Below, one piece after another: positions 1 through 8,040 of a stretch of 8,111 bases of DNA; the first letter of the stretch is position 1, and the number at the start of each line of letters is the position of its first letter. This DNA is from JBHIER01 sp046760705 [NCBI: bacterium] (GTDB taxonomy: Bacteria; JBHIER01; G020348925). Position numbers and translations under genes: made by a program. A model generated the notes under the pieces. It had not been told where the DNA came from. It saw only the letters and a list, made by a program, of their open reading frames with translations, and ran no database searches. The DNA is taken from positions 1-8,111 of the forward strand of contig JBHIER010000130.1 of NCBI GenBank assembly GCA_046760705.1, read 5' to 3'.

Positions 1-58
1 TAGTGGCGGACGTCCCTGTCCGCCAGGGGGGAGGGGTGGACACAGAGTTCCCCCCTAC
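1..58. repeat. REP-like element 1, cut by the window edge
   Basis: The forward hairpin covers 1-24, with a perfect 7-bp stem GGCGGAC/GTCCGCC. The first G of its GTAG foot lies outside the window. The inverted hairpin covers 33-58 and ends in CTAC; its GGGGTGGA arm faces a TCCCCCC arm with one mismatch. Confidence 0.75.
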
Positions 59-108
59 AGAAGCCGTAGGGGGCTGCCCCAGAGTTTGGTGCAGAAAACA
101 GATAAACC

Positions 109-199
109 GTAGTGGCCGACGTCTCTGTCGGCCTGTGTAGGGGCGGTCGTCTCTGTCCGCCAGGAGGGGGATGGGGTGGACACAGAGTTCCACCCCTAC
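109..199. repeat. REP-like element 2, with an extra hairpin
   Basis: This element has three hairpins: forward 109-133 (stem GGCCGAC/GTCGGCC), a second forward copy 137-161 (GTAG foot, one T-T mismatch in the stem), and inverted 173-199 ending in CTAC (GGGGTGGA/TCCACCCC, perfect). The extra hairpin explains why this element is about 30 nt longer than the other two. Its first stem differs from elements 1 and 3 at two paired positions that change together. Confidence 0.78.
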
Positions 200-248
200 A
201 GAAACCACGCGGGCTGACACAGGGTTCGGCCCACAAATGAAATGAACC

Positions 249-309
249 GTAGTGGCGGACGTCTCTCTCCGCCAGGGGGGATGGGGTGGACACAGAGGTC
301 CACCCCTAC
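249..309. repeat. REP-like element 3
   Basis: The forward hairpin is at 249-273 (GTAG foot, GGCGGA/TCCGCC with a C-C mismatch next to the loop) and the inverted hairpin at 283-309 (perfect 8-bp stem GGGGTGGA/TCCACCCC, ending CTAC). It ends only 22 nt before the ATG of the ABC ATPase gene, so it would lie in that gene's 5' leader if transcription starts upstream. Confidence 0.78.
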
Positions 310-2729: not shown

Positions 2730-5700
2730 ATGTCCCTCTTCAAATGCAAGAAACCGATCTTTTCCCTCCTTGTGGGCGGGCTTATTATGGGTTTGGTCGT
2801 GTTCACGTTGGCGCAAAAATCTGACAGAAACTCAGCCCCAACACCGAAGAATGGAGAAGATATTCAATACGCATTCGTATCCTCATGGGCCCCCTTTCAG
2901 ACGGCTGGAGCAGAAGCTGGGGGGCAGAGAGCCTCTGAAGCACTCATAGGGAGTGACATCAAGGCTCATCCTGAAGGCCTGGCCCACGCAGAGCAAGGTC
3001 TGTACGAATACAATGAAGGAGACACTATATGTATTCGTTATCGAGTCTGGTGGGCAGAGCCACCGGCAGAGCCAACGCCTCTCTGTCTGTGGCCTGAGCT
3101 GGAGACTTTTCCTCAAGATGCCTTGTTTGACCCACATTCAGGGTGCGTCTGCGATTACGACACAGCAGTGGTCATAGTCTGTTGGGTTCCTGATTACTGT
3201 GATGCTGGAGAGTATACCTGGGTCTACTACTATGCAGCATACGGATGTGAGGAACCTAGTGGTGTCCTCGAGGCACCTATTACCGTCCACAACGTCAATA
3301 GATGTCCGAGCATACAGGCCGATCCACCTGGACCTTTTACAGTTTCCGCGGGAGAGTGCGTTCATGTTGACGTAACAGCCACCGACCCTGATATGACGGA
3401 GTGCGGGGACGATAATATTCTATTGTTTGCCGCCAACATGCCTCCTGGGGCCACTTTTGTGGACAATGGGGGTGGTGACGGAGACTTTGACTGGTGTGCC
3501 ACCGAGTCAAGCGCTGGGCAGTACACCGTCACTTTCTACGCCTACGATCTTTACGAGTGCGTGGATAGCGCTACGGTGGAGATTACGCCGCCCAGTTGCC
3601 CGCCCACAGGCTATCCCCAAGCCGGGACCGATGCCTTTCCCTCAAGCGCGGGTTTGCAGGTATATTTCCCCGGGATAGGGGGGGCGGTGGTCAAATTGGA
3701 AGGGCAGACGACCGTGCAAAGGGGTGAGCCCACCCTGACCGAGGAGTTGATGACCATCGATACTGAGATCATCGATATAAACTTGACCGGTTCTGATCCG
3801 ATCTTGGGACCCATAACCCTGGCCCTCAACCCTCAGTACCCGTCGACCGGCCAGATCACACAATTGGACCCAGAGGAAGAATCCCCCATGGAGAACTTTT
3901 TCGATGTCTACGTCGAACTGTACACAGAGATAGGGGTGCTTCACAACGAGGATCCGATACGAATGCGGGCGACCATCGAATCCATTCCACCGCGGGCCGG
4001 GGTGTACGAGTATGTGGGTGAACCGCACCTTCCTCTGTATGACGGGGAGGGCATTGAAATGGGTTATATCGTCAATGTCAAACACGTCACTCAGCCGCCC
4101 CGCGATCGCTTTCAATCCACGGCTACCTTCAAAGAAGTGGAGATTTATGGTGTTGGAACAGACACAAATATCGTGGTAGTTGGTCCGACCGAGGTGGTCA
4201 GAAGCGACTGGGTGGGAGGGGTGGTGACCACTGAGATGGTGGAGCTGAACCTGACGGGCTCCGGTCCCAGTTTAGGCCCGATTACGGTCACCGAAGATCC
4301 GTCAAAAATCTCCACGGGCCAGGTCTCATCGATGTTGCCTGCGAAAGCGTCGTTGGAGCCCTCCCAAGAGTTTCCGGCCGACAGTTGGTTCAATATCAAC
4401 CTGGAGATAGAAACCGGCTACGGAACGGGTACTGCTTGTGCGCCGGTGCAGGCCACGATTGATAGTTTTCCTCCCATTGGAGCTGAATACGTAGGGCCGC
4501 ACGATGTGGATCTTGTCGATGAGAGCGGCCAGGTGATCGGTCGGATCAGGAGGGGTTTCGTCCATCTCCCCGAAGAACCTCTCGAACCGCCTCCGATCAG
4601 CACTCTACCTCCGGCTGGTTGGGACTGCTTCGACTCCGAGGCCCAGATCACCCTCCAGATCGGTCAGGATCAGGAGACCGTCCTCCTGACCGGTCCGACC
4701 ATAGTCAGCCGGGGCGATCCCCAAGACCCTGGTGACGGCCTCCCTGAGGTGCAGACTGAAATTATCTTTATGGCCTTGGAGGGCAGCAGCGTTCTTCTCG
4801 GCGGGCCAATCACAATCGCTGAGTGTGATACCCCTTCACCAGGTAAGATCAAACAACTGAAGCCCGAACTGGGGCTGCCGGCCATCAGCGACTTCACCGT
4901 GAACTTCGACCTGTTGACACCCTATGGAACGTATTGGGGACAGCAGGGCCCGGTGGTCGCCCTCATCGACAGCATCCCTCCGGAAAATGAGGAGTATCAG
5001 GGGCCTCATCCGGTGGTGATCACTGATCCGACCACCGGCGAAGATATCGGTCAGATCATCGATTTCATCCATATTCCCAAGGAGTCCATTCCCTGTCCAG
5101 ATATAGCCTTCCCTGTCCCCTGCCCGCCTTGTGAAACGGGCCAGAGGGGCGATGCCAACGGTGACGGGACCATCAACGTGCTCGATGCGCTGACGGTGGT
5201 CAACCACATCTTGGAAATAGCTCCCTGCCCGGACCTGTGCTGGTGCGACTGCAACTGTGACGATGCTATCAACGTTCTGGATGTGCTGTGCATAGTCAAC
5301 ATCATCTTAGAGATTTACGTCCCAGATACAGGTGTTGATTACATGGCCACCACGGCGGTCATAACCCTGCAGGTCGGGGAGATGACCGTGCCAAATGTGA
5401 CCGTGACCGGAGCCACCCAGGTTCAGAGGGGCGTTCCCTACGATCCAGGTGACGGGAAGGACAAGATCGACACCGAGATCGTCTCCATGGATCTGACCGG
5501 AACGAGTCAACTTGGTCCTATTACGGTGACCGAAAGTCCTGATTATGCTTCCACCGGTTACATACAGGCATATCAAACCGGGCGGGATTTTCCAGCGGGG
5601 AGTTTCTTCGACATTTTCGTAGAGATCGACATTCCCGACGTGGGCACCGTGCACAACGAAGACCCCATACCGATGAGAGCCAAGATAGATACGATCCCCC

Positions 5701-6551
5701 CCACCGGCCGGATCTATTATCCCCCTTACAGAGTGGAGATCCCTGTCTATGGTCCCAAGGGTGATCTGATCGGTTACATCGTCCATGTGACGCATAAGAT
5801 CGATTCGGAGCTTCCAGTTCCGCCGACACTGTTGAAGAGTGGGCGCTCTTCGGTGATCATTGAGGTGGAGGAGAAGTATGCTAAAACGGGTGAGAGAATT
5901 CTTCTGCCTGTCTCGGTGGAGGCAGGAGAAGCGATCAGCGGGGTTCAGTTTACACTAAGCTACAATGCCAGCAGGCTAACTCCGCTGACTCCGCAACTGA
6001 CCGAGCGTAGCGCTGAGATGGAGTTAGCCTCAAACGCCGTGGACGGTGAGTTGATGGTGCTCATTTACAGCCTCGAGGGGAAAGCCATCCCGGCTGGTCA
6101 TGGTCCTATTGTTCAAGTACCTTTCAAGGTGGCAGACTTTGGACGTAGGACTTTGGACTTTGGACTGGAGTTCAAAGAAGTTATTGTGGCTGGGGAGGAC
6201 TGCTGCCGGGCTCTTCCCGTCGAAGTCAGGCCCATCACTGTGAAATTTGACCGCACTGCACCCGAGGATTACGCCCTGCACCAGTGCTACCCCAATCCCT
6301 TCAATCCAGTAACCAGTATTCAGTATTCAGTGATCAGTGATCAGTCCCCTCCCCACGTCACCCTCAAAATTTACAACTTGCTGGGGCAGGAGGTGAGAAC
6401 CCTGGTGGATGAACCAAAGGAGCCGGGGTATTATACGGTAACGTGGGATGGTAGGGATGAGGAAGGAGACGATGCCTCCAGCGGGGTCTATTTCTACCGG
6501 CTCCAGGCTGGGTCTTTTGTGAGTACCAAACGCATGGTGTTGATACGATAG
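2730..6551 (+). CDS. Large secreted modular protein with dockerin, cohesin-like domain and type IX sorting domain
   Basis: 1273 aa, probably exported by Sec and then carried to or across the outer membrane. Order of parts: signal peptide 1-28 (KCKK, hydrophobic stretch, likely cut after TLA); Cys-rich beta domain at about 78-188; Ig-like domain at about 192-287 (VTATDPD...PPGATF...AGQYTVTFYAYD); repeated module copies at about 301-455, 461-612, 632-784 and 869-1022; dockerin at about 805-866 between copies 3 and 4, with Ca-binding loops at 808-819 (DANGDGTINVLD) and 840-851 (DCNCDDAINVLD); cohesin-like domain at about 1040-1173 (GERILLPVSV, ISGVQFTLSYN); C-terminal sorting domain 1177-1273 with YPNPFNP at 1187-1193. 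No catalytic domain is seen, so a structural, adhesive or scaffolding role is likely. Two heptanucleotide repeats lie in the coding sequence near the 3' end. The dockerin and sorting domain are firm; the cohesin call is moderate. Confidence 0.9.
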   Translation: MSLFKCKKPIFSLLVGGLIMGLVVFTLAQKSDRNSAPTPKNGEDIQYAFVSSWAPFQTAGAEAGGQRASEALIGSDIKAHPEGLAHAEQGLYEYNEGDTICIRYRVWWAEPPAEPTPLCLWPELETFPQDALFDPHSGCVCDYDTAVVIVCWVPDYCDAGEYTWVYYYAAYGCEEPSGVLEAPITVHNVNRCPSIQADPPGPFTVSAGECVHVDVTATDPDMTECGDDNILLFAANMPPGATFVDNGGGDGDFDWCATESSAGQYTVTFYAYDLYECVDSATVEITPPSCPPTGYPQAGTDAFPSSAGLQVYFPGIGGAVVKLEGQTTVQRGEPTLTEELMTIDTEIIDINLTGSDPILGPITLALNPQYPSTGQITQLDPEEESPMENFFDVYVELYTEIGVLHNEDPIRMRATIESIPPRAGVYEYVGEPHLPLYDGEGIEMGYIVNVKHVTQPPRDRFQSTATFKEVEIYGVGTDTNIVVVGPTEVVRSDWVGGVVTTEMVELNLTGSGPSLGPITVTEDPSKISTGQVSSMLPAKASLEPSQEFPADSWFNINLEIETGYGTGTACAPVQATIDSFPPIGAEYVGPHDVDLVDESGQVIGRIRRGFVHLPEEPLEPPPISTLPPAGWDCFDSEAQITLQIGQDQETVLLTGPTIVSRGDPQDPGDGLPEVQTEIIFMALEGSSVLLGGPITIAECDTPSPGKIKQLKPELGLPAISDFTVNFDLLTPYGTYWGQQGPVVALIDSIPPENEEYQGPHPVVITDPTTGEDIGQIIDFIHIPKESIPCPDIAFPVPCPPCETGQRGDANGDGTINVLDALTVVNHILEIAPCPDLCWCDCNCDDAINVLDVLCIVNIILEIYVPDTGVDYMATTAVITLQVGEMTVPNVTVTGATQVQRGVPYDPGDGKDKIDTEIVSMDLTGTSQLGPITVTESPDYASTGYIQAYQTGRDFPAGSFFDIFVEIDIPDVGTVHNEDPIPMRAKIDTIPPTGRIYYPPYRVEIPVYGPKGDLIGYIVHVTHKIDSELPVPPTLLKSGRSSVIIEVEEKYAKTGERILLPVSVEAGEAISGVQFTLSYNASRLTPLTPQLTERSAEMELASNAVDGELMVLIYSLEGKAIPAGHGPIVQVPFKVADFGRRTLDFGLEFKEVIVAGEDCCRALPVEVRPITVKFDRTAPEDYALHQCYPNPFNPVTSIQYSVISDQSPPHVTLKIYNLLGQEVRTLVDEPKEPGYYTVTWDGRDEEGDDASSGVYFYRLQAGSFVSTKRMVLIR
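6135..6169 (+). repeat. Heptanucleotide repeat (GACTTTG) within the large gene
   Basis: Five consecutive 7-nt units in register: GACTTTG (6135), the degenerate GACGTAG (6142), GACTTTG (6149), GACTTTG (6156) and the degenerate GACTGGA (6163). It encodes residues 1136-1147, giving DFG twice, in the cohesin-like domain after its VPFKV strand. Loss or gain of one unit would shift the frame. Confidence 0.8.
6314..6345 (+). repeat. Heptanucleotide repeat (CAGTATT/CAGTGAT) within the sorting domain
   Basis: Two CAGTATT units (6314, 6321) and two CAGTGAT units (6328, 6335) are followed by CAGT, all in one 7-nt register. It encodes residues about 1196-1205 right after YPNPFNPVT. This stretch is three residues longer than the same loop in the 393-aa neighbour (15 against 12 residues between NP and HVTL), so the repeat appears to have expanded a surface loop. 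One unit gained or lost would put the rest of the sorting domain out of frame. Confidence 0.82.
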
Positions 6552-6622: not shown

Positions 6623-6657
6623 GGGCTACACACGACGGTGCCATTGTAGTGTAGCCC
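6623..6657 (+). terminator. Terminator-like hairpin after the large gene
   Basis: GGGCTACAC (6623-6631) pairs perfectly with GTGTAGCCC (6649-6657) around a 17-nt loop and is followed by TTTAT. The stem is strong but the T tract is short, so termination may be partial. The downstream arm can also pair differently: GCCC (6654-6657) with GGGC (6663-6666), which would break this stem. Confidence 0.5.
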
Positions 6658-6709
6658 TTTATGGGCGTATTGCCGTGGTATAGCCCTTTATGGCTGTATC
6701 TGCATTGTC
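6652..6709 (+). repeat. Degenerate tandem direct repeat, 29-nt period
   Basis: TAGCCCTTTATGG occurs at 6652-6664 and again at 6681-6693. The rest of each 29-nt unit is similar but diverged (GTAT then TTGCC or CTGCA). Each copy can fold: GCCC-TTTAT-GGGC in the first, and a 7-bp stem TATAGCC/GGCTGTA with one G-T pair around CTTTAT (6679-6698) in the second. I see no convincing promoter between here and the next gene. Confidence 0.55.
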
Positions 6710-6773
6710 CCTATTTAGGTTTCTTGAGACCTTGGAAATCTTATGAACTTGGTCGAGAGTGCCATAAACGAAA

Positions 6774-6782
6774 AAGGAGGTG
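6774..6782 (+). promoter_or_regulatory. Ribosome binding site of the 393-aa gene
   Basis: AAGGAGGTG ends 8 nt before the ATG at 6791. It fixes this start over the in-frame ATG at 6743, which lacks such a site and would place 16 extra polar residues before the signal peptide. Confidence 0.82.
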
Positions 6783-6790
6783 TGAGCGAA

Positions 6791-7972
6791 ATGAAAAAGC
6801 TCAGTTTGATTCTGGTGTGTGCCGCCATTCTGGGATTGGGAGCAGTGGGGATGGCGGAAGCCTTCTATCCTGCCGCAGGGGATACGTTTCCGCCCGCGGG
6901 CCAAGATGAGTTCAATTCGAGTGCCACGCTCTCGATCCAGCTCCAGGGGATTATTGTGGAGAATGTACAGTTTAGCGGCCCGACGGTCATCCAGAGGCAA
7001 GATCCACAGGGTCCTCCCCCCAGGACTATTGAGACTGAGATAGTGGATCTCCAACTCACGTCTGGAAGCACTGCCCTTGGAGTCATCACGGTCACCCTGA
7101 ATCCTGATATTCCGTCAGTGGGACAGATTACGGCAAACCAGACCGAGACAGATTTTCCCGCAGACAGCTACTTCGACGTCTATGCGCAGATGACAACCAC
7201 TCTGTACGGCGGGCCTTATCACACCATAGACCCCCTTAGAATGGAAGGGCTGAATCTTACGGATCTTCCTCCATACGGAGTCATATACGGCCCGCACAAA
7301 CCTGCTACGTGGGTTCCCTTATATGACGAGCAGGATGAGCTTGTTGGGTATCTTTTTCATGTTACCCACGAAGTGGCTATCACTCTGAACCATTTTACGG
7401 TCTACACTGTGGATCAGGTGGTGATGATTGAGTGGACCACCGGGACCGAAATGGACAATGCCGGCTTCAACCTCTACCGAAGCGGAAAGGAGGATGAAGG
7501 GTACGTCAAGATCAATGGGGAGCTGATCCCGGCTGAGGGGGACGCGACTGCGGGAGCCGGGTATAGTTTTACTGACGCTGCTGTTATCCCTGGAGCTACT
7601 TACTACTACAAGCTCGAAAGTCTCGCCTCTGACGAAAGAACGGATGTGTATGGACCGGTAATGGTGAAGGTGCCCGCCGGTGTTTCAGTGCCAACGGACT
7701 TCTATCTGGTCCAGAACTACCCCAATCCCTTCAATCCCCGGACGACCATCGAATTTGCTCTTCCGGAGAAGGCTCACGTAACCCTAACGATTTACAATTC
7801 ACTCGGTCAACAGGTGAAGGAACTGATGAATCAGGAGTGGCCAGCCGGGAGATACCAGACGTATTGGGATGGGAAGGGCATCTATGGTGAGGTCCTCCCC
7901 AGCGGCGTCTATTTCTGCAAGATCTCAGCGGGGAATTGGACGAGTACGAAGAAGATGATGCTGTTGAAGTAG
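6791..7972 (+). CDS. Secreted protein with shared module, FN3-like domain and type IX sorting domain
   Basis: 393 aa, extracellular or surface-bound. Signal peptide 1-24 (MKKLSLILVCAAILGLG, likely cut after AEA). Residues about 38-193 are one copy of the module found four times in the upstream protein: GPTVIQR, TEIVDLQLT, LGVITVTLNP, DFPADSYFDVYAQ, IDPLRM, PPYGVIYGPH, LYDEQDELVGYLFHVTH. Residues about 196-297 form a fibronectin-III-like domain (VVMIEWTTGTEMDNAGFNLYR...YYYKLESL) that commonly precedes this sorting domain in related bacteria. The C-terminal 303-393 is the sorting domain, with YPNPFNP at 310-316, IYNSLGQ, and SGVYF near the end. It has no dockerin, cohesin or enzyme domain. It lies 239 nt after the large gene in the same orientation. 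A partner or simpler paralogue of that protein is the likely role. Confidence 0.9.
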   Translation: MKKLSLILVCAAILGLGAVGMAEAFYPAAGDTFPPAGQDEFNSSATLSIQLQGIIVENVQFSGPTVIQRQDPQGPPPRTIETEIVDLQLTSGSTALGVITVTLNPDIPSVGQITANQTETDFPADSYFDVYAQMTTTLYGGPYHTIDPLRMEGLNLTDLPPYGVIYGPHKPATWVPLYDEQDELVGYLFHVTHEVAITLNHFTVYTVDQVVMIEWTTGTEMDNAGFNLYRSGKEDEGYVKINGELIPAEGDATAGAGYSFTDAAVIPGATYYYKLESLASDERTDVYGPVMVKVPAGVSVPTDFYLVQNYPNPFNPRTTIEFALPEKAHVTLTIYNSLGQQVKELMNQEWPAGRYQTYWDGKGIYGEVLPSGVYFCKISAGNWTSTKKMMLLK

Positions 7973-7996: not shown

Positions 7997-8040
7997 GGGT
8001 AAGGTGGTCAATACGTTTTGATCCTTTGACCACCTTACCC
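7997..8040 (+). terminator. Strong hairpin after the 393-aa gene
   Basis: GGGTAAGGTGGTCAA (7997-8011) and its exact complement (8026-8040) form a 15-bp perfect stem with a 14-nt loop, 24 nt after the stop codon. No T run follows on either strand, so it may act as a transcript-stabilising 3' hairpin or as a factor-assisted terminator rather than a classical intrinsic one. Confidence 0.6.

What the first reader, a model, noticed from the sequence alone, without database searches (positions are those of the whole stretch)
5139..6551. Dockerin and cohesin-like domain in one type IX-sorted polypeptide
Two dockerin calcium loops (808-819, 840-851) and a cohesin-like domain (about 1040-1173) lie in the same chain, ahead of a type IX sorting domain, with no enzyme domain. 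In cellulosomes these are opposite partners normally split between enzyme and scaffold. Here they could let copies of the protein self-assemble head to tail on the cell surface, or dock other dockerin proteins of the genome. This would be an unusual surface polymer system.
Basis: partly seen in the sequence, partly recalled or inferred. Interest (0 to 1): 0.62.

Follow-up and report, generated by a model that had tools for sequence, protein, structure and literature searches.

The report
Surface adaptor with cohesin and dockerin
This gene makes a large cell-surface scaffold protein that carries both halves of a well-known protein 'plug and socket' pair, an arrangement that recurs in another bacterial phylum with the same sorting domain, so it is a variant of a known kind rather than a new polymer system, although its four barrel domains resemble a fatty-acid-binding protein and deserve a test.

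Summary
ORF 2730-6551 (1273 aa) has calcium loops at exactly 808-819 and 840-851 (Pfam Dockerin_1, over cut-off), a cohesin-family domain at about 1040-1173 (segment alone 28.1 bits, cut-off 24.1; whole protein 23.4) and a type IX sorting domain (1184-1273); no enzyme domain was found. Both modules in one chain is what adaptor scaffoldins have, and chains with one dockerin and several cohesins are reported in ANME archaea. In the Zixibacteriota genomes held, 118 of 132 carry cohesins and 127 of 132 dockerins; of 65 cohesin frames in 40 hand-picked regions, 56 also match the sorting domain, 17 a dockerin and 10 all three. Head-to-tail polymerisation is neither shown nor excluded; no pairing prediction was possible. 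Best reading: a surface-anchored adaptor whose cohesin recruits other dockerin proteins and whose dockerin enters another cohesin. The boldest open reading is a surface array of hydrophobic-ligand barrels held in a cohesin-dockerin network. The window's organism and genome are not known.

The parts
2730..6551 (+). whole ORF, 1273 aa, secreted multi-domain surface protein
   Evidence: open frame, domains
2730..2816 (+). N-terminal signal-peptide-like stretch, residues 1-29 (read by eye; no signal-peptide program run)
   Evidence: sequence
3315..3599 (+). weak Ig-like region, residues about 196-290
   Evidence: Big_9 19.7 and He_PIG 16.5 bits, both under cut-off
3594..4103 (+). DUF6073 / DynF-like barrel D1 (residues 289-458)
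   Evidence: PF19550 four stretches, 127.3 bits; model pLDDT 89.4; Foldseek to DynF 6ubl 1.6e-10
4092..4613 (+). DUF6073-like D2 (residues 455-628)
4623..5120 (+). DUF6073-like D3 (residues 632-797)
5139..5312 (+). type I dockerin-like domain, residues 804-861
   Evidence: PF00404 28.5 bits whole protein, 40.2 segment, cut-off 22.9
5151..5186 (+). calcium loop 1, residues 808-819
5247..5282 (+). calcium loop 2, residues 840-851; the two 22-residue halves are identical at 14 of 22 positions
5313..5831 (+). DUF6073-like D4 (residues 862-1034), between dockerin and cohesin
5847..6248 (+). cohesin-family domain, residues about 1040-1173 (model match 1044-1136)
   Evidence: PF00963 28.1 bits on the segment; 48.3 bits against own cohesin model
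6279..6548 (+). type IX sorting domain, residues 1184-1273
   Evidence: TIGR04183 35.2 bits; FlgD_ig 36.3 bits
6743..7972 (+). neighbouring gene: one DUF6073 domain and a type IX sorting domain; no dockerin or cohesin found
   Evidence: 32% identical to residues 865-1273 of the first protein

Best explanation
A non-cellulosomal, surface-anchored adaptor scaffoldin. The protein is exported and anchored through its type IX sorting domain (inferred from the domain). Its single cohesin captures dockerin-bearing secreted proteins, and its single internal dockerin engages a cohesin on another surface protein, so it links members of a surface network and displays four DynF-like barrels. Shown: the domains and their order, and the recurrence of cohesin + dockerin + sorting domain in one frame in another phylum. 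Inferred: anchoring, binding of either module, partner identity, and any ligand of the barrels.
For: Domain calls. Both calcium loops intact. In Zixibacteriota 118 of 132 genomes have cohesins and 127 of 132 dockerins, often tens per genome. Of 65 cohesin frames in 40 chosen regions 56 match the sorting domain, 17 a dockerin, 10 all three; 6 of those 10 lie next to and downstream of another cohesin + sorting-domain frame. Adaptor scaffoldins combine both modules (PMC4959524, passages); a cohesin scaffoldin with a type IX-style CTD plus dockerin enzymes is proposed for Cloacimonadota (PMC8542988, passages); ANME chains with a dockerin and up to five cohesins (PMC9012536, passages).
Against: No binding evidence of any kind. 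The window's own genome is not held, so partners cannot be named. Cohesin is under Pfam's cut-off in the whole protein. Of the 10 three-module frames, Pfam puts the dockerin over cut-off in only 2, the cohesin in 8, and both in 2. In a second phylum none of 14 cohesin frames in ten short loci carried a dockerin. The neighbouring gene has neither module.
Confidence: 0.55

Rival explanations
1. Copies of the protein polymerise head to tail: the cohesin of one binds the dockerin of the next.
For: One cohesin and one dockerin per chain would give linear growth; the two dockerin halves are similar (14 of 22).
Against: No pairing prediction was possible: the only cohesin model failed. In adaptor scaffoldins the interscaffoldin contact is of another type than the enzyme contact (PMC4959524, passages). 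Each copy also has its own sorting domain, which makes chain growth away from the cell less needed.
Confidence: 0.12
2. The cohesin-like and dockerin-like domains no longer bind: they act as structural beads in a surface stalk of beta-rich domains.
For: Cohesin matches only profile positions 4-103 of 139 and is marginal in the whole protein. Internal position of the dockerin is atypical, between D3 and D4.
Against: Both calcium loops keep their acidic pattern; dockerin segment 40.2 bits.
Confidence: 0.22
3. The dockerin folds back on the cohesin of the same chain as an intramolecular clasp around D4.
For: Dockerin and cohesin flank one 170-residue domain; several Zixibacteriota frames also have dockerin next to a cohesin.
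Against: No structural test; no precedent seen in the passages read.
Confidence: 0.08

Closest known systems
Monovalent adaptor scaffoldins of cellulosomes (PMC4959524, passages)
   Same: one chain with cohesin and dockerin and no enzyme domain
   Different: here a type IX sorting domain, four DUF6073 barrels, internal dockerin; no carbohydrate-binding module found
Dockerin + multi-cohesin proteins of ANME archaea (PMC9012536, passages)
   Same: non-cellulosomal, both modules in one chain
   Different: archaeal; up to five cohesins; no type IX sorting domain expected
Ca. Stygibacter (Cloacimonadota) scaffoldin-like protein (PMC8542988, passages)
   Same: cohesin scaffold with a C-terminal domain for surface attachment; dockerin partners in the genome
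   Different: dockerins reported on separate enzymes; many cohesins and CBMs
Cohesin-dockerin-sorting-domain frames of Zixibacteriota (this work: L102, L103, L105, L109, L112, L117, L120, L121, L125, L129)
   Same: all three modules in one frame; in most, an Ig-like domain too
   Different: no DUF6073 domain detected in them (U scan of the cohesin regions)
DynF (PDB 6ubl; PMC8725005, passages)
   Same: fold of the D domains: Foldseek 1.6e-10, TM 0.84, 25% identity; profile hit 1.5e-12
   Different: DynF is a biosynthesis protein, dimeric, palmitate bound; D domains are tandem modules of a surface protein with no ligand known

Membership tests
Cohesin family (PF00963) | profile match over the curated cut-off | tested here: met
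   28.1 bits on residues 1034-1182, cut-off 24.1; but 23.4 for the whole protein
Cohesin family (PF00963) | cohesin fold (nine-stranded jelly roll; recalled) | tested here: inconclusive
   single-sequence model pLDDT 31.7; a profile of window + 17 cohesins hits 33 PDB sequences, named scaffoldin, cohesin or anchoring protein except two named endoglucanase, but 17 of its 18 rows were chosen as cohesins
Cohesin family (PF00963) | binds a dockerin | not testable with these tools
   no binding data
Type I dockerin (PF00404) | two duplicated calcium-loop motifs, profile over cut-off | tested here: met
Type IX secreted protein | C-terminal sorting domain | tested here: met
   TIGR04183 35.2 bits, cut-off 23; Pfam Por_Secre_tail 20.8 and CHU_C 21.9 are under their cut-offs
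Type IX secreted protein | type IX machinery in the same genome | not testable with these tools
   own genome not held
Adaptor scaffoldin | cohesin and dockerin in one chain without catalytic domain | tested here: met
Adaptor scaffoldin | cohesin and dockerin of different specificity, with partners in the genome | not testable with these tools
   own genome not held; no binding test
Cellulosome component | carbohydrate-binding module or cellulase partners | tested here: not met
   none in the protein or its neighbour by Pfam; genome not searchable
DynF / DUF6073 (PF19550) | profile over cut-off and DynF-like barrel | tested here: met
   127.3 bits, cut-off 25; model and Foldseek
DynF / DUF6073 (PF19550) | fatty acid bound inside the barrel | not testable with these tools
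   known for DynF only (PMC8725005, passages)

The most novel reading that the evidence does not exclude
A surface array for hydrophobic molecules: tandem DynF-like barrels bind lipids or other hydrophobic ligands outside the cell and are gathered on the surface by cohesin-dockerin contacts. The window protein would be both a carrier (four barrels) and an adaptor (cohesin, dockerin, sorting domain). In Zixibacteriota the same barrels, up to seven or so per frame in one genome, occur with a dockerin-model match in 14 of 17 frames.
Probability: 0.13. Interest if true: 0.65.

Novelty: new variant of a known kind. Interest (0 to 1): 0.3.

Why it matters
It shows that cohesin-dockerin networks outside cellulosomes are probably a broad trait of bacteria with type IX-like sorting: in one phylum nearly all held genomes carry both modules, and chains with both plus a sorting domain recur. 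It also ties the little-studied DUF6073/DynF barrel to that network, which gives a concrete, testable cargo hypothesis other than plant cell-wall breakdown.

Tried and rejected

Source phylum: not settled. The permease next door gave 0 of 132 matches at 1e-60 in Zixibacteriota and 1 of 80 (33% identity) in the phylum of G007. The whole-protein scan of genome contigs returned 8 loci, each matched only in the sorting domain for the best segment. Plasmids: no match for residues 289-1034. Viral contigs with the whole protein: no relative; with the neighbouring gene: 26 loci, no DUF6073 match in them, cohesin-model matches in 4 frames (L150, L151, L155, L158) with a sorting domain and no dockerin.

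DUF6073 profile A1 by phylum: 12 of 132, 0 of 39, 18 of 80, 3 of 395 in the Ignavibacteriales phylum, an even draw. No frame with DUF6073 + cohesin was found in the 25 DUF6073 regions examined; the window's three-way mix (barrel, dockerin, cohesin) was not seen elsewhere.

BFVD search of the barrel: nothing at E 0.001. Search of solved structures with the cohesin segment alone: only weak hits, the best two being scaffoldins at E 0.14 and 0.21.

First dockerin model (3 sequences) found dockerins in 8 of 65 cohesin frames; the second (27 rows, 21 of them from the same regions, so partly circular) found 17 of 65. Pfam on those 8; on the 7 further three-module frames. Two of the 8 had no Pfam family at all. 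Pfam put a dockerin over its cut-off in 3 of 16 DUF6073 frames scanned (the 17th was not scanned). 7 of the 65 cohesin frames are cut by a contig or region end.

Papers: 'DUF6073' 0; 'Zixibacteria' with 'dockerin' 0, with 'cohesin' 0; 'zixi' with the other two: one paper holding all three terms, on enzyme assembly by peptide tags, seen in the listing only. Peer et al. 2009 (PMC3035643) is not held and was not read.

Full report
What is there. The frame 2730-6551 encodes 1273 residues. In order: signal-like start; a region of about 165 residues without a Pfam family over cut-off; a weak Ig-like region; three DUF6073 domains (D1-D3); a dockerin (804-861); a fourth DUF6073 domain (D4); a cohesin-family domain (about 1040-1173); a type IX sorting domain. 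The domain after D4 is a real cohesin-family member: 28.1 bits for the segment alone, 48.3 bits with a model of 27 cohesins from Zixibacteriota against 7.5 for the best of 5000 shuffles. In the whole protein it is just under Pfam's cut-off (23.4 against 24.1). The next gene (6743-7972) has one DUF6073 domain and a sorting domain and is 32% identical to residues 865-1273.

How common the combination is. The tool gave the phylum of G008, whose locus L008 is titled Candidatus Zixiibacteriota. There, 118 of 132 genomes match the cohesin family (111 over cut-off) and 127 of 132 the dockerin family. I chose 40 regions in 33 genomes by hand, 39 of them from the listed cohesin matches and one (L132) beside DUF6073 genes. 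They hold 65 frames with a cohesin: 56 also match the sorting domain, 17 a dockerin, 10 all three, in 10 genomes. Since the regions were chosen for cohesins, and mostly from the top of a list that was cut, these are not phylum-wide rates. The dockerin model is partly built from the same regions. Pfam alone is stricter: among the 10 three-module frames the cohesin is over cut-off in 8, the dockerin in 2 (L109, L121), both in 2. Six of the 10 follow another cohesin + sorting-domain frame on the same strand with no or a short gap. In the phylum of G007, 38 of 80 genomes match the cohesin family, but none of 14 cohesin frames in ten short loci has a dockerin-model match, 9 of 14 have the sorting domain.

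The D domains match DUF6073 (127.3 bits in all) and, as a five-row profile, the solved DynF structure (1.5e-12). The model of D1 has pLDDT 89.4 and pTM 0.81, and DynF is the only Foldseek match in the PDB at E 0.001 or better (1.6e-10, TM 0.84). DynF is an eight-stranded barrel with palmitic acid inside (PMC8725005, passages). In Zixibacteriota 12 of 132 genomes have the domain; of 17 frames in the regions fetched, 14 also match the dockerin model, though Pfam supports a dockerin over cut-off in only 3 of 16 scanned. In the phylum of G007, 18 of 80 genomes have it, and 10 of 10 frames examined carry a sorting domain and no dockerin. So this domain travels with one surface-attachment module or another; the window's protein has dockerin, cohesin and sorting domain together.

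How it most likely works. Shown: the modules and their order. Established knowledge: dockerins bind cohesins; sorting domains direct export through the type IX route and anchoring. Inferred: this protein sits on the surface, catches dockerin proteins with its cohesin and attaches to another cohesin by its dockerin. Adaptor scaffoldins of that kind are described, one type being generally monovalent (PMC4959524, passages); ANME archaea have chains with a dockerin and up to five cohesins (PMC9012536, passages). I could not test it: the cohesin model failed, no complex prediction is offered, and the genome is not held.

Novelty. The pairing of cohesin and dockerin is a known kind. The mix with tandem DynF-like barrels and a type IX sorting domain was not found in the 25 DUF6073 regions examined nor in the 40 cohesin regions, and 'DUF6073' is in no paper of the library. 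I call it a new variant of a known kind.

Noticed in passing
L105, L109, L112, L117, L120, L125: Six cohesin-dockerin-sorting-domain frames lie directly downstream of another cohesin + sorting-domain frame on the same strand, suggesting a recurring gene pair in Zixibacteriota.
   Followed up: partly
L045-L050, L052-L054: Frames of about 770-840 residues in the phylum of G007 with one DUF6073 domain and a sorting domain; those printed (L045, L048, L049, L052) also hold a stretch that looks, by eye, like a C39-type cysteine peptidase (the peptidase label is recalled, not scanned).
   Followed up: no
L019, L020 (genome G051): Three frames of 1555-1973 residues with about seven or eight DUF6073 profile matches each and a C-terminal dockerin-model match.
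   Followed up: partly
window 1-309: Imperfect direct repeats of 34-63 nt with a GGCGGACGTC...GTCCGCC core ahead of the ABC transporter genes.
   Followed up: no
window 6646-6699: Two imperfect 25-nt direct repeats between the two DUF6073 genes.
   Followed up: no
window 7997-8040: Perfect 15-nt inverted repeat with a 14-nt loop just after the second gene, possibly a terminator; not tested.
   Followed up: no
window 6791: The second gene probably starts at 6791 (Met 17 of the listed frame), where a signal-peptide-like stretch begins (by eye).
   Followed up: no
window 5220-5294: The dockerin is rich in cysteine: six between residues 833 and 854, which may mean disulphide bonds around loop 2.
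   Followed up: no
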